From Gammaproteobacteria bacterium (GTDB lineage: Bacteria; Pseudomonadota; Gammaproteobacteria; UBA1113): a DNA stretch of 12,231 nt. Shown here piece by piece: positions 179-7,751 of this stretch (positions are counted from its first letter, which is position 1; each line of letters begins with the position of its first letter). The stretch is from positions 1 through 12,231 of the forward strand of contig JAIELR010000169.1 in assembly GCA_019752835.1 (NCBI GenBank), given 5' to 3'. A model generated the notes under the pieces. That model saw nothing but the letters and a program-made list of their open reading frames with translations, ran no database searches and had not been told where the DNA came from. The translations under genes were made by a program, and so were the position numbers.

Positions 179-2113
179 ATGGATTGGTCGGTACAAGAAA
201 TACTCGAAGAACTGATACAGTTGGGTGAAAACATTCAAATTGAAGCTAAACAAGCGAGCGAAATTGGCTCTTCGGTGATGCAAACTATTTGCGCCTTCAC
301 AAATGAACCAGGACTAGGCGGTGGATGGCTCTTGCTCGGTGTTTGTGAACCTGATGATGAACATGACTCCTTTTGGATTAAGGGCATTAGTAATCCGGAT
401 AAACTGTTAGGTGATTTACAAAATAATTGCCGTAACCAATTTGAACATCCGGTTACGATTAGTTGTAAACGTGAGGAAATCGAGGGTAAATTAATTATTG
501 CCGTTTTTGTTAATGAGTTAGAGCCTTCAGCTAAGCCTTGCCGCTTTATTGGAAAATTTGATAAACACAATAAAAAGAAGACTGGAGTTTGGCGGCGTGG
601 AGCTAATGGTGATTATGAGTGTATTGAGCGAGAGTTAGAGCCGATTCTTATTGCCAGAACGGGACTTAGCTATGAACAGACTGTTTTTCATGATACTCAT
701 TTTGATGATCTCGAGCAAAGTGCGATTGATTTGTATCGTAGATTACGAGCACAGATAAAACCAAGCGCTGAAGAGTTACAAGTTGATGATGTTAATATGC
801 TTTATTCACTGCATTTAATTAAAAAGGAAAAGAATAATTACTTGCCTAATTTAGCAGGTCTACTTTTACTTGGAAAGTCACTGTCCCTACGACGTTTATT
901 GCCTGCTGTTAGAGTTGATTATGTCCGTCTTCAAGGCACTGAATGGGTTGAAAATCCAGAGCAACGTTTTAGCACGACATTAGATTTACGCGAACCGCTG
1001 CTTCGATTAATTACCAAGCTAGAATCAGCAATTCTTGATGATATGCCTCATCATTTTCGATTAGAGGAAGGCCAAATTCAACGCTCTGATCAGCCTTTGT
1101 TGCCACAAAAGGTTATTCGAGAGGCTATTGTTAATTCAGTGATGCATCGGGATTATCATGTGAATCAACCTATTTTAGTGGCACGTTATAGCAACCGTCT
1201 TGAAATTAAAAATCCAGGGTATTCACTTAAGCCGGTAAGTGAAATGAATGATATGGGTTCAAAGTTACGAAATCCCATTATTGCGAATGTGCTTTACGAA
1301 CTGGGTTTTGCTGAGAACAAAGGCAGCGGCGTTCGGACCATGCAACGGTTATTGGAAAATGCAGGTTTAACTAAGCCAGTCTTTTTTTCGAATAGAGAAG
1401 GAAACGAATTTACCGCAACCTTTTTACTCCATCAATTATTAAATGAAGAGCAATTAAAATGGTTGCAACAATTTAAACAATTTAACTTAAGTGATGATGA
1501 GGCTAAGGCCCTTGTTTTAATTAAAGAAATCGGGGCAATTGATAACGCAGCACTTCGTGCGATTACAGGGTTGGATACATTAGCGGTAAGTCAGATATTA
1601 CGTCGTCTTTGGCAGCAATATCATCTGATTGACAAGGAAGGAAATGGGCGTGCAACTTACTATAGACCTTCGGAGCTATTAGAAAGCACACTAAGAAGGA
1701 GTATATTAAATAGAAGTGACTCCATCTCAAATGTGGGTGACCTCCCGTCCAATAGAAGTGACCTCCCGTCCAATAGAAGTGACCTCCCGTCCAATAGAAG
1801 TGACCTCTCGTCAAATAGAAGTGACCTCCCTCGCTTATTGCAACAATCTATCGATGCTTTATCTAGCAAACCACGAAAGTTTCAATTATGGCCTATTCTT
1901 CTCAATCTATGTTTACATTGCCCGCATTCTGCGGAAGAAATTGGAAAAATTTTAAATCGAGATGTTACTTCTCTAAAAACCCATCATCTGACTGAGCTTA
2001 GAAAACAAGGTCTAATTGATTACACTCACCCCGAAGTGATTAACCACCCCGAGCAGGGATATCAAATCACCAACAAAGGCAAACGTTGGTTAAAAGAGAA
2101 AAAAGAGATCTAA
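179..2113 (+). CDS. AlbA_2 (Schlafen-type) / GHKL-ATPase regulator, COG2865 family
   Basis: A 644-residue cytosolic protein, complete. ATG 179 is preceded by AGGAG at 166-170 with 8-nt spacing. Residues ~15-150 form an AlbA_2/Schlafen-like domain (start motif GENIQIEAK, then AFTNEPGLGGGWLLLGV). Residues ~290-420 form a degenerate GHKL-type ATPase: REAIVNSVMHRDY at ~312-324 is the N-box, RLEIKNPG the G1-like box and ENKGSGVRTM (~380) the G2-like box. Two winged-helix-like segments follow (~440-500 and ~565-640), separated by a heptapeptide repeat linker (511-552). Databases often label this family RecG-like, but no helicase motifs are present. Family members are called transcriptional regulators or appear in defence and toxin-antitoxin settings; the exact role is unknown. 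The stop is 5 bp before the metallopeptidase start, so the two are probably one transcript. Confidence 0.85.
   Translation: MDWSVQEILEELIQLGENIQIEAKQASEIGSSVMQTICAFTNEPGLGGGWLLLGVCEPDDEHDSFWIKGISNPDKLLGDLQNNCRNQFEHPVTISCKREEIEGKLIIAVFVNELEPSAKPCRFIGKFDKHNKKKTGVWRRGANGDYECIERELEPILIARTGLSYEQTVFHDTHFDDLEQSAIDLYRRLRAQIKPSAEELQVDDVNMLYSLHLIKKEKNNYLPNLAGLLLLGKSLSLRRLLPAVRVDYVRLQGTEWVENPEQRFSTTLDLREPLLRLITKLESAILDDMPHHFRLEEGQIQRSDQPLLPQKVIREAIVNSVMHRDYHVNQPILVARYSNRLEIKNPGYSLKPVSEMNDMGSKLRNPIIANVLYELGFAENKGSGVRTMQRLLENAGLTKPVFFSNREGNEFTATFLLHQLLNEEQLKWLQQFKQFNLSDDEAKALVLIKEIGAIDNAALRAITGLDTLAVSQILRRLWQQYHLIDKEGNGRATYYRPSELLESTLRRSILNRSDSISNVGDLPSNRSDLPSNRSDLPSNRSDLSSNRSDLPRLLQQSIDALSSKPRKFQLWPILLNLCLHCPHSAEEIGKILNRDVTSLKTHHLTELRKQGLIDYTHPEVINHPEQGYQITNKGKRWLKEKKEI
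1709..1834 (+). repeat. Six tandem 21-bp repeats inside the AlbA_2 ATPase gene
   Basis: Six head-to-tail 21-bp units start at 1709, 1730, 1751, 1772, 1793 and 1814. Units 3 and 4 are identical; units 1 and 2 are the most diverged. The core reads AATAGAAGTGACCTCCCGTC. The period is a multiple of three and in frame, so it encodes the heptapeptide NRSDLPS about six times (residues 511-552) as a polar linker between two winged-helix-like regions. The same periodicity keeps three other frames open, explaining spurious ORFs here on both strands. Unit number is likely to vary between strains by slippage without breaking the frame. Confidence 0.95.
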
Positions 2114-2899: not shown

Positions 2900-3568
2900 T
2901 TAAATGGGCTGCAATTTTTCTAAACGTGTTAGCCAAGCATCAAAATGAAGACACTCTCGCCTAATGACACTTAATCCGATTTCAATTGCAGCAAGTGAGC
3001 CATGTATTGGTTTTTCATAGGCAGGATAAATTTTACCAATGCGTTTGCTGGGTGCGGTATCAGGGCTATTATTAATTTCTTCAGGAGCATTAAATTGATC
3101 GCGTATTTCCTTGAATTTTGTCGCAAGTTTCAATTGATCAATTCCTCTAGCCAATTTCTCAGAGTCGCTGAATAAAAGGCCTTCAAACTCATACATTTGT
3201 ATGTAGGGAATAAAGCGACTCAAGGGCTCTTTGCCCAAATTTTTCTCAAGTTGTTGAATTAAAGAATCTAGAACACAACTTGCTTTATCGATTATGTTCG
3301 TTTTTGTTGTTGCTATTTTCTTCCCAGGAAAATTTTCGGGTAATCCATAAAAATCGAAGAAAGTAGTGCAGTAAGCTGTTTTATCATTTAAGCGATTTTG
3401 AATATCTATCAATAGTCGTTCAAATTTTACATTACCACCTTTATGTCCCGGTTTTCCGATTAACGCTGGCTGCAAATAAATTTCTTTAGAATCAAAAAAT
3501 GGGGATAATACCTCATTAATAAACATTTCCTCAGTCTGTCCTTCACAAATCACATGTATTCTAATCAT
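2900..3568 (-). CDS. DUF4276 TOPRIM-like protein, partner of the AAA ATPase
   Basis: A 222-residue protein. The open frame extends further upstream, but ATG at 3568-3566 is the sensible start: it forms an ATGA overlap with the ATPase stop (TGA 3567-3565) and places the family's N-terminal motif at the start (MIRIHVICEGQTEE). Conserved points are E9-G-Q-T-E13, D72 in TTFFDFYGLP, YEFEGLLFSD (126-135), NNSPDTAPSKRIGK (166-179) and the C-terminal CLHFDAWLTRLE. The E...D arrangement after a beta-strand fits a TOPRIM-like metal-binding nuclease fold, as in OLD family proteins. The nuclease role is inferred from that resemblance, not shown. DUF4276 genes are typically next to an AAA_21 ATPase, as here. 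It is last in a three-gene operon and converges with the metallopeptidase gene across 46 bp. Confidence 0.88.
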   Translation of the reverse strand: MIRIHVICEGQTEEMFINEVLSPFFDSKEIYLQPALIGKPGHKGGNVKFERLLIDIQNRLNDKTAYCTTFFDFYGLPENFPGKKIATTKTNIIDKASCVLDSLIQQLEKNLGKEPLSRFIPYIQMYEFEGLLFSDSEKLARGIDQLKLATKFKEIRDQFNAPEEINNSPDTAPSKRIGKIYPAYEKPIHGSLAAIEIGLSVIRRECLHFDAWLTRLEKLQPI

Positions 3569-4671
3569 TTTCGGGGTCGCCCCCCTAAAATATTTTTCTC
3601 CCATAACTCGCCTATCGTGTAATCTTCTAACCAAGTTGCTATCTCGTCTTTCTCACAACGATTAAAAGTAGTTGCTCCATCTTTACGCTCAACAAGGATT
3701 AAATCCTCAATTGAAAACTCATTGAGTAGTGGTACAGATTGAGTTGAAATGATAATTTGCATTCGAGTGGAAGCAGAGCGTAATAAAGAACCGAGTAATG
3801 TAATAGCGTAGGGATGTAGACCGAGTTCAGGCTCATCGATGATGAGAGTAGAGGGAGGATTTGGTTGCAAAAGTGCGGTAACCAAGCAAATAAAACGAAT
3901 TGAACCGTCAGATAATTGGCTTGGCCATAAGGCATAATCGCTGTTCTTCTGACGCCACAACAGACGAATTTGCTCCTCTTCGGTTTTTAGTTTTGTGGGT
4001 TTTAAAACAAAATCATCAAAGAACGGAAGGGCTAATCGGACAGTTTTGCATATCTGAGCAAACACGTCTGGTGATTCTTGTTGTAACCTATAAAGATAAG
4101 CAGCCAAATTGGATGCATCTGAGCGTAAGTATTCATTATCATGAAGAGAGCCTAAGCGTTTTACTCCGGCAGTATCGCTAGTATCGTGGAAATGATAAAT
4201 TTTCCAGCTAGCAATAGCTGAATAACAATAACCAAGAATCCGTGGATACGAGACTTCTGTTTTTTGAAATTCTGCTTTAAGCTTAGACTCTCTATGCCCT
4301 GCTCCAAAAGGGATCCTTTTTTCACTGTCGCCAATAAATATCGCTTGCTCCTTACTAAAAATAAATTCTCCATTCAATGTGGGTTCGAGTTCAAACTCAT
4401 ACCTATTGGCGCCAAATTTAATAAAAGAATACATTATCGACGTCTCTTTGATACCAAAACTCAGAATACGATCAGCTGATCCCTGATTCATTGTCCAACT
4501 CTGTAAGCGAGCTTCTACTAATTCACCTAGCATTTTAAAGTAAGATACAAAATTACTCTTTCCTGCGCCGTTTGATCCAATTAACACATTGAGGTCGCCA
4601 AGCTCAAAATCATCTAATTTTTTAATCGATTTAAACCCTCGTATTGTTAAGAACTTGATTGGATTTTTCAT
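3565..4671 (-). CDS. AAA_21 family ABC/SMC-like ATPase (OLD-like, DUF4276 partner)
   Basis: A 368-residue cytosolic ATPase. The N-terminus FLTIRGFKSIKKL and Walker A GSNGAGKSN (residues 32-40) are followed by a variable middle, the ABC signature LSDGS (253-257), Walker B LIIDEPELGLH (276-286) and a switch strand IISTQS (307-312), where many relatives have His instead of Gln. The ending DYTIGELWEKNILGGRP is characteristic of ATPases paired with DUF4276. No TOPRIM domain is fused; it is supplied by the next gene. Start ATG 4671-4669 overlaps the phosphorylase stop by 4 bp (ATGA), and its own stop overlaps the DUF4276 start the same way, so the three proteins should be made in linked amounts. 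Such ATPases are thought to sense or clamp DNA and gate a nuclease; that is family inference. Confidence 0.92.
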   Translation of the reverse strand: MKNPIKFLTIRGFKSIKKLDDFELGDLNVLIGSNGAGKSNFVSYFKMLGELVEARLQSWTMNQGSADRILSFGIKETSIMYSFIKFGANRYEFELEPTLNGEFIFSKEQAIFIGDSEKRIPFGAGHRESKLKAEFQKTEVSYPRILGYCYSAIASWKIYHFHDTSDTAGVKRLGSLHDNEYLRSDASNLAAYLYRLQQESPDVFAQICKTVRLALPFFDDFVLKPTKLKTEEEQIRLLWRQKNSDYALWPSQLSDGSIRFICLVTALLQPNPPSTLIIDEPELGLHPYAITLLGSLLRSASTRMQIIISTQSVPLLNEFSIEDLILVERKDGATTFNRCEKDEIATWLEDYTIGELWEKNILGGRPRK

Positions 4672-5543
4672 ACGCTCTCCCCCGTCAACACCGGCAACGC
4701 CATAAGTATCATTCGATTAATGGCGGCATATGGGTCTGTTGAAAATTTTTGGGTAATCCGATTAGCGACGATGGTGTTGAGTGAGCAACAATGATGACCT
4801 AAAAGCCGACTCATGCCGTAAATGCCTGAGGTTTCCATTTCAAAATTAGTAATACGATGACCATCTGCATGAAAAGAGTGCATTTTTTCGATAAAGTTTT
4901 TTTCTTTGGTGGGACCGCGTAATACCCGTCCCTGCGGGCCATAAAATCCGGCACAGGTTGCCGTAATACCAGCTTCACAATAAGGGGAAAATGCATCAAT
5001 CAGCGCGGTATCACCCGCAGTGATGTAAAATGGCGTAATCGGTGAAAAATGATCAATGGCTGCGTTAAGTAGCTTCGTTTCTTCGTCGGTAGGGGGCAAA
5101 TCGTAGAATGACATGAGACAGTCAAAACCTAGGCCGTGACTTGAAACAACAAAGCTATCGAGCGCGATGTCTTCTTGCAGGGCGCCAGCCGTACCCAGTC
5201 TAACTAGACGCAAACTTGATAAACGATCTTTAATTTGACGCGTTTTAAAATCAATATTAACTAAGGCATCCAACTCATTCAGAACAATATCGATATTGTC
5301 AGTACCAATTCCCGTCGAAATAACAGAAAGGCGCTGATTATTCAAATAACCTGTGTGCGTCACAAACTCACGTTTTTCTTTACGAATGTCTACCTGGTCA
5401 AAATACCGTGATACGCCAGGCACACGGCCAGGGTCACCGACAAGAATAACCGTTTCCGCAAGGTCTTCGGGAAGGATGTTTAAATGATAAACACTCCCAT
5501 CTTGATTAAGGATTAATTCTGATTCAGCAATGATATGGGGCAT
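4668..5543 (-). CDS. Nucleoside phosphorylase (uridine phosphorylase-like, PNP_UDP_1)
   Basis: A 291-residue member of the nucleoside phosphorylase superfamily, which splits a nucleoside with phosphate into base and (deoxy)ribose-1-phosphate. Visible motifs are GDPGRV (36-41, phosphate binding), SVISTGIGTDN (73-83), RLGTAGALQ (115-123, with Arg and Thr matching phosphate ligands in bacterial uridine phosphorylase) and NFEMETSGIYGM (233-244, the ribose-binding EME loop). The N-terminus SELILNQDGSVYHL resembles the longer (~290 aa) uridine phosphorylases I associate with Bacteroidetes; E. coli Udp is ~253 aa. Substrate is most likely uridine but not certain. AAGGA lies 10 nt before ATG 5543. 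It is first in the operon and its stop overlaps the ATPase start (ATGA). All motifs look intact, so activity is expected. Confidence 0.9.
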   Translation of the reverse strand: MPHIIAESELILNQDGSVYHLNILPEDLAETVILVGDPGRVPGVSRYFDQVDIRKEKREFVTHTGYLNNQRLSVISTGIGTDNIDIVLNELDALVNIDFKTRQIKDRLSSLRLVRLGTAGALQEDIALDSFVVSSHGLGFDCLMSFYDLPPTDEETKLLNAAIDHFSPITPFYITAGDTALIDAFSPYCEAGITATCAGFYGPQGRVLRGPTKEKNFIEKMHSFHADGHRITNFEMETSGIYGMSRLLGHHCCSLNTIVANRITQKFSTDPYAAINRMILMALPVLTGESV

Positions 5544-5607: not shown

Positions 5608-5666
5608 ATACCTCTTGAACGGTATTTTGCAAGTCAGAAAATTGCAAAATACCGTTCAAGAGGTAT
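5608..5666. repeat. Perfect 25-bp inverted repeat with 9-nt loop (operator or hairpin)
   Basis: The left arm 5608-5632 is the exact reverse complement of the right arm 5642-5666, with loop GTCAGAAAA between them. It lies in the gap between the divergent phosphorylase operon and barrel cluster. The outer half-site AGAGGTATA (5659-5667) recurs in the same orientation at 5566-5574, closer to the phosphorylase start. No T-run follows either arm, so it is not a normal intrinsic terminator. It could be a regulator-binding site for both divergent promoters, a 5'-UTR hairpin, or a small mobile palindrome. Confidence 0.9.
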
Positions 5667-7124: not shown

Positions 7125-7751
7125 ATGATTAAAAAAGTTCTATTAGCGCTGGCAACAACAATGCTTGCTGCGTCAACATCGGTCTTTGCAACAGCAAAAA
7201 ATGGTTTGTACTTGGGCTTGCAAATGGGTGAATCCAAAGCCAATTATAGTGATAATAGCTCTGGCTTGAATAGTTTTTTTAGCCAACCTACACTGCCTAA
7301 TGCAAGCATAGATGAAAATTCATTTGCGGGCCGCCTCTATATGGGGTATCAATGGAATAAGTTTATTGCAGCTGAGCTAGGTTATAATTATTTAGGTAAT
7401 GTTCAATTCAATAATATTTTCGGTATATCGGGTGCTGATGCCGATCTACGCCAACAAGCTGCTGATTTATCGGCAAAGGTTATGTTGCCTATCACTAAAC
7501 AATTTAATGTATTTGCGTTGGGCGGCGGCGCTTATGTTTGGGCTAAAGCCTGGAATACAAGTACGACGGCTGACACTATGGGCGTGGAAGTAGGTAGCTC
7601 GCAAGGTACGTTTACGCCTGTGTATGGTTTAGGTGCTGACTATGATTTCAATGAGCATTGGGGTGTTGATGTTTCGTGGCGCCGTTTTATTGCCAATGGT
7701 GATCTCGAACAAACTGACTTGGCGATGGCGGGTGTTGCTGTCCATTTTTAA
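7125..7751 (+). CDS. Outer-membrane beta-barrel protein 3
   Basis: A 208-residue exported barrel protein. AAGGAG at 7114-7119 sits only 2 nt from ATG 7122 but 5 nt from ATG 7125, so 7125 is preferred. The signal peptide MIKKVLLALATTMLAAS ends near VFA/ATA. The mature part (NGLYLGLQMGESKANYS, FAGRLYMGYQWN, AAELGYNYLGNVQFNNIFG, KVMLPITKQFNVFALGG) aligns block by block with barrels 1 and 2, and it ends with a perfect outer-membrane insertion signature, AGVAVHF, with terminal Phe. It is probably co-transcribed with barrel 2. Its last 123 bp overlap antisense with the end of the unrecognised gene from the amt operon; the clean barrel C-terminus argues that this reading is real. Confidence 0.87.
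   Translation: MIKKVLLALATTMLAASTSVFATAKNGLYLGLQMGESKANYSDNSSGLNSFFSQPTLPNASIDENSFAGRLYMGYQWNKFIAAELGYNYLGNVQFNNIFGISGADADLRQQAADLSAKVMLPITKQFNVFALGGGAYVWAKAWNTSTTADTMGVEVGSSQGTFTPVYGLGADYDFNEHWGVDVSWRRFIANGDLEQTDLAMAGVAVHF

What the first reader, a model, noticed from the sequence alone, without database searches (positions are those of the whole stretch)
2900..5543. Nucleoside phosphorylase locked into an OLD-like ATPase / DUF4276 operon by two ATGA overlaps
Seen: three complete genes on one strand, both junctions being 4-bp ATGA stop/start overlaps. Known: AAA_21 ATPases ending in GELWEKN.LGGRP pair with DUF4276, a TOPRIM-like protein, resembling split OLD or PARIS-type defence modules. 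Inference: the phosphorylase is not a passing housekeeping gene but a third component, either depleting or converting nucleosides as an effector or salvaging products of nuclease action. I know of no named system with this gene order, but could not search.
Basis: partly seen in the sequence, partly recalled or inferred. Interest (0 to 1): 0.72.

Follow-up and report, generated by a model that had tools for sequence, protein, structure and literature searches.

The report
Defence pair behind uridine-salvage gene
A two-gene anti-virus candidate (an ATPase and a nuclease-like protein) sits directly behind an ordinary nucleoside-recycling gene, and the comparisons made here suggest that the neighbour is accidental and not a third part of the system.

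Summary
The three genes and both 4-nt ATGA overlaps are real. The ATPase and DUF4276 protein match, almost full length, the profiles of the candidate defence system that PADLOC calls HEC-01 (E 7.8e-144, 9.6e-81). The phosphorylase is not a third component on this evidence. It is a uridine-phosphorylase-type enzyme with an intact active site, present in 9 of 10 genomes of a related order with no pair beside it, and alone in 31 Bacteroidota loci. Conversely, 0 of 116 other regions with a DUF4276 or ATPase relative (101 recognised pairs) carry this phosphorylase. Upstream genes differ widely: FtsK, FtsH, ArgRS, TrpC, NuoC, or restriction genes. The ATPase tree separates the window's pair from those of the related order, so the pair was probably acquired separately. 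The overlap may let the pair share the salvage gene's transcript (inferred). One gap remains: the nearest pair with known neighbours is 63% identical, and the 65-76% relatives were not reached. An ordinary finding, with a small point of interest in where such pairs land.

The parts
4668..5543 (-). PNP_UDP_1 gene, 291 aa, uridine-phosphorylase type; read here as a housekeeping neighbour, not part of the defence pair
   Evidence: Pfam 6.7e-20; best solved relative 3bje, T. brucei uridine phosphorylase; active-site residues of E. coli Udp kept
3565..4671 (-). HEC-01A, AAA_21/OLD-type ABC ATPase, 368 aa
   Evidence: PADLOC PDLC04175 E 7.8e-144; AF2 model pLDDT 81 matches PtuA/SMC/RecN heads
2900..3568 (-). 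HEC-01B, DUF4276, 222 aa, TOPRIM-like
4668..4671 (-). ATGA overlap phosphorylase stop / ATPase start, preceded by GGGGGAG
3565..3568 (-). ATGA overlap ATPase stop / DUF4276 start
   Evidence: a possible 4-nt overlap here in 37 of 80 pairs

Best explanation
Two unrelated things are joined. (1) A core uridine-phosphorylase-type gene (uridine + phosphate to uracil + ribose-1-phosphate) of a bacterium probably related to Legionellales. (2) A horizontally acquired HEC-01 pair that came to lie exactly behind its stop codon. HEC-01A is an OLD-type ABC ATPase that probably dimerises and senses an infection signal. HEC-01B is a TOPRIM-like protein, probably a nuclease, that it holds or activates, as I recall for PARIS and Gabija. 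The ATGA junction with its Shine-Dalgarno-like stretch would let ribosomes ending on the phosphorylase reinitiate on the ATPase, so that the pair is expressed from the salvage gene's transcript. Shown: genes, overlaps, family membership by HMM, folds of models, lack of linkage in the samples taken, discordant history. Inferred: nuclease activity, sensing, shared transcript, substrate.
For: HEC-01A/B HMM hits. Phosphorylase in 9 of 10 genomes of the related order, none of the 9 loci with the pair; DUF4276 in 2 of those 10, on contigs other than the phosphorylase's, behind ftsK. Window ATPase and DUF4276: no tblastn hit in 32 phosphorylase loci; DUF4276 HMM 0 of 41 phosphorylase loci, 40 of them distinct. 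Phosphorylase HMM: 0 of 116 other regions (86); the same HMM finds the distant E. coli Udp at 100.6 bits. 30 of 48 upstream proteins scanned singly against Pfam gave no PF01048 and many different families. ATPase tree of 30 rows: the window groups with 11 database relatives (100/98), not with G007/G008 of the related order. Methylase-ATPase-DUF4276-helicase order in two Aeromonas plasmids.
Against: The closest pair relatives (65-76% identical) were not checked for neighbours; the nearest pairs with context are 63, 60, 59 and 58% identical and 57%. A 4-nt overlap with a non-restriction gene was seen only in the window (1 of 80, none of 22), so this junction is unusual for the pair, and overlapping genes often encode subunits of one complex (title of PMC10666635, search listing). 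PF01048 is a known immune effector domain in other systems. My phosphorylase HMM is of this subfamily; other PF01048 families might be missed in the regions.
Confidence: 0.87

Rival explanations
1. Three-component defence system: the ATPase senses infection, DUF4276 cuts nucleic acid, and the phosphorylase breaks down nucleosides as an effector or recycles the products.
For: Two ATGA overlaps. PF01048 proteins (Cap17) are listed as effectors in CBASS, Detocs, pAgo, DRT8 and NLR-like systems (PMC10952713, passage).
Against: 0 of 116 other regions carry the gene. The gene stands without the pair in its own order and in Bacteroidota. One Pfam domain only, no SLOG match, no PADLOC hit, phosphorolytic active-site residues kept.
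Confidence: 0.04
2. Local co-option: only in this lineage the phosphorylase has become useful to the pair, for example through coupled expression or salvage of released nucleosides.
For: Tight junction; only one genome with this order seen, so lineage-specific use cannot be excluded.
Against: No second example; the phosphorylase shows no departure from its family at the eleven residues checked.
Confidence: 0.07
3. The pair is not defence but a selfish toxin-antitoxin-like or housekeeping module.
For: It also lies behind housekeeping genes, and beside vapBC on a plasmid.
Against: It is also found in methylase/helicase clusters and has OLD/PARIS/Gabija- and Septu-like folds.
Confidence: 0.1

Closest known systems
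HEC-01 (Hma-embedded candidate 1; PADLOC-DB 2.0.0; Payne et al. 2024 bioRxiv 10.1101/2024.01.29.577857, seen only as a reference; HEC-01 is named among systems of Desulfovibrio piger in PMC12724379, passage)
   Same: Both proteins hit its HMMs almost full length; ATPase first, DUF4276 second.
   Different: Not embedded in a helicase-methylase-ATPase cluster here; sits behind a phosphorylase gene.
PARIS (AriA/AriB) and OLD
   Different: Two chains, unlike single-chain OLD; DUF4276 and not the PARIS TOPRIM family (recalled as DUF4435).
WonAB (PMC12137116, passages)
   Same: Two-gene OLD-ABC ATPase plus nuclease, both needed for protection.
   Different: WonB is described as a PD-(D/E)xK-fold nuclease; DUF4276 models as TOPRIM-like.
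Cap17 / Detocs PNP effectors (PMC10952713, passage)
   Same: PF01048 domain beside defence genes.
   Different: No SLOG match, no CBASS or Detocs partner found in the window genes scanned, uridine-phosphorylase active-site residues kept, core-gene distribution.
Uridine phosphorylase 3bje of T. brucei (named so in PMC7271239, passages; Larson 2010 seen as a title in its reference list)
   Same: Best solved relative, E 3e-31, query residues 7-283.
   Different: Window protein is shorter (291 against 349 residues); its activity is untested.

Membership tests
HEC-01 | ATPase matches HEC-01A profile | tested here: met
   PDLC04175, 477 bits, residues 2-366
HEC-01 | DUF4276 protein matches HEC-01B profile | tested here: met
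   PDLC04188, 269 bits, residues 1-220
HEC-01 | the two genes adjacent, same strand, ATPase first (that this defines the system is recalled) | tested here: met
   the same order was recognised in 99 of 116 other regions, by a search that looked for this order only
HEC-01 | anti-phage activity | not testable with these tools
   no experiment
Three-gene system with PNP | recurrent linkage of PNP_UDP_1 to the pair | tested here: not met
   0 of 116 other regions; DUF4276 in 0 of 41 phosphorylase loci, 40 distinct
Uridine phosphorylase | phosphate, ribose and base residues of E. coli Udp | tested here: met
   H20 G36 R40 R58 R115 T118 F200 Q204 E235 M236 E237 match and are invariant in 42 rows (41 distinct); R168 falls on a gap in the alignment, and R206 fits it only by eye; residue roles recalled
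Uridine phosphorylase TIGR01718 (NCBIfam equivalog) | score over 280.3 bits | tested here: not met
   87.7 bits; so it may work like, but is not a member of, that equivalog
Cap17 PNP effector | SLOG or other partner domain, or CBASS/Detocs genes nearby | tested here: not met
   only PF01048 in 291 aa; none in the window proteins scanned (10, 7)
PARIS | AriA plus AriB | tested here: inconclusive
   AriA 90 bits, far below HEC-01A 477; the 5 PADLOC families hit by DUF4276 are all HEC-01B; fold similar

The most novel reading that the evidence does not exclude
HEC-01 pairs spread without a promoter of their own, by landing directly behind stop codons of well-expressed housekeeping genes and being translated by reinitiation; in this lineage the host gene, a uridine phosphorylase, has in addition become a co-expressed metabolic helper or effector of the pair.
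Probability: 0.06. Interest if true: 0.5.

Novelty: new member of a known kind. Interest (0 to 1): 0.17.

Why it matters
It shows that two perfect ATGA overlaps do not by themselves make a functional operon: the inner one is frequent in the family, the outer one was seen with this neighbour once. It adds a HEC-01 copy from a bacterium that is probably near Legionellales. It also draws attention to the variety of genes behind which such pairs lie, which may bear on how they are expressed after transfer.

Tried and rejected

Results that need telling. In the 41 phosphorylase loci my ATPase HMM hit 8 ORFs at E 1e-13 to 4e-20, far below true pairs; none has a DUF4276 beside it. By sequence five look like ABC transporter genes, and three (in L003, L012, L019) were not identified.

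Sampling limits. In one search, 43 rows were over the cut-off; 40 regions covering 41 rows were fetched (not G102 and G052:C35). In one search, 88 rows were over the cut-off and 40 were fetched, nearly all from the top of the list. In one search all 30 rows were fetched. A pair was recognised by my HMMs in 32 of 40, 2 of 2, 4 of 4, 39 of 40 and 22 of 30 regions; two regions held two pairs, so 101 pairs in 99 of 116 regions, some with a short or broken member. Many regions are cut by contig ends: 22 of 80 pairs show no same-strand upstream ORF of 80 aa within 500 bp, 7 of 22. 30 of 48 upstream proteins were scanned singly (20 of 29, 10 of 19); two had no Pfam match; the 15 were not scanned. Plasmid context was read for 8 of 16 records with the ATPase. 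My ORF calls take the longest frame, so distances are those of the nearest start codon in frame.

Full report
What is there. Three minus-strand genes run phosphorylase (4668-5543), ATPase (3565-4671), DUF4276 (2900-3568), each overlapping the next by the four bases ATGA. A run GGGGGAG stands just before the ATPase start, inside the end of the phosphorylase gene. The phosphorylase does not look truncated: its length of 291 aa equals that of its nearest relative with known context, 74% identical, in a Legionellales MAG. The flanks are an AlbA_2/HATPase_c_4 protein, a YgjP metallopeptidase, OmpA-like barrels, an ammonium transporter and an SF1 helicase. None of them clearly marks a defence island; the AlbA_2 protein does match part of a pAgo model at 69 bits.

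What the phosphorylase is. Its best solved relative is 3bje, a T. brucei uridine phosphorylase (passages and a reference title in PMC7271239). Eleven active-site positions of E. coli Udp are kept and are invariant in the 42 rows aligned, 41 of them distinct (roles of residues recalled). It misses the cut-off of the NCBIfam equivalog (87.7 against 280.3 bits), so uridine is the likely, not the proven, substrate. All 8000 candidates scored in the protein database are relatives; several of the 120 listed are named uridine or nucleoside phosphorylase by their sources.

Are the three linked? From the phosphorylase side: 32 genome loci, 31 of them Bacteroidota, show no tblastn hit to the pair. In a related order the gene is in 9 of 10 genomes and DUF4276 in 2 of 10, on other contigs. 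There the phosphorylase lies among what I read, by sequence and from memory, as cytidine deaminase, thymidine kinase and phosphopentomutase genes, or next to a polyamine-type ABC transporter, while the two pairs lie behind ftsK (FtsK domains). From the pair side: DUF4276 is over the cut-off in 31 of 369 gammaproteobacterial genomes and in 50 of 296 genomes of the phylum of a Bacteroidota genome; an ATPase relative at E 1e-60 or better is in 27 of 398 genomes of the phylum of the Legionellales MAG. In 40 + 40 + 30 fetched regions, two regions of the related order and four plasmids, 116 in all, a phosphorylase HMM that finds E. coli Udp at 100.6 bits found nothing; it found only the window's gene. 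The four closest ATPases with context, 63, 60, 59 and 58% identical, are among them. Four more plasmid tables list no phosphorylase (that annotation is incomplete).

What stands upstream instead. Of the 30 upstream proteins scanned one by one, out of 48, none is PF01048. They include FtsH, ArgRS, a GlnRS/GluRS-type synthetase, UvrD, a UvrA-like protein, TrpC, NuoC, inorganic pyrophosphatase, aminopeptidase P, PEP carboxylase and an aminotransferase; and restriction genes such as N6_N4 methylases, HsdS, Eco57I and GmrSD. So the pair follows either restriction genes or one of many housekeeping genes. In the window that gene is the phosphorylase.

History. In a maximum-likelihood tree of 30 ATPases the window groups with 11 database relatives, the named ones from other proteobacteria and a myxobacterium (100/98), while the pairs of the related order group elsewhere (100/99) at 44-45% identity. 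The two parts seem to have different histories.

Weak points. Pairs 65-76% identical to the window's exist in the protein database but were not reached with their neighbours. Only one genome with the three-gene order is known to me, so a local role cannot be excluded. The HMM used for the neighbours is of this phosphorylase subfamily and could miss remote PF01048 families. Expression, nuclease activity and protection are untested. The window has no named host; its placing near Legionellales rests on the phosphorylase alone.

Noticed in passing
window 5608-5666: Perfect 25-nt inverted repeat with a 9-nt loop between the phosphorylase and the first OmpA-like gene; RNA fold of the leader z -7.8; 22 nt of one arm not found exactly in the 172 loci then held; no T run after it.
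   Followed up: partly
window 1737-1830: 21-bp unit repeated 4.5 times inside the AlbA_2 protein gene, giving SNRSDLP repeats.
   Followed up: no
window 7629-7751: The third OmpA-like ORF and the convergent 249-aa ORF without Pfam match overlap by about 120 bp; the latter also overlaps the ammonium transporter gene by 44 bp.
   Followed up: no
L055 2590-4346: A HEC-01-type pair in G007 whose DUF4276 is broken into two ORFs, directly behind ftsK, 1 nt after its stop; an intact relative lies behind ftsK in G008.
   Followed up: partly
L091-L172: HEC-01-type pairs lie behind many different housekeeping genes as well as in restriction clusters, which hints at a landing habit behind gene ends.
   Followed up: partly
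L056 2371-7090: A pair 57% identical in its ATPase, on Acinetobacter plasmid pTR11_2, sits between vapBC and tet(39).
   Followed up: no
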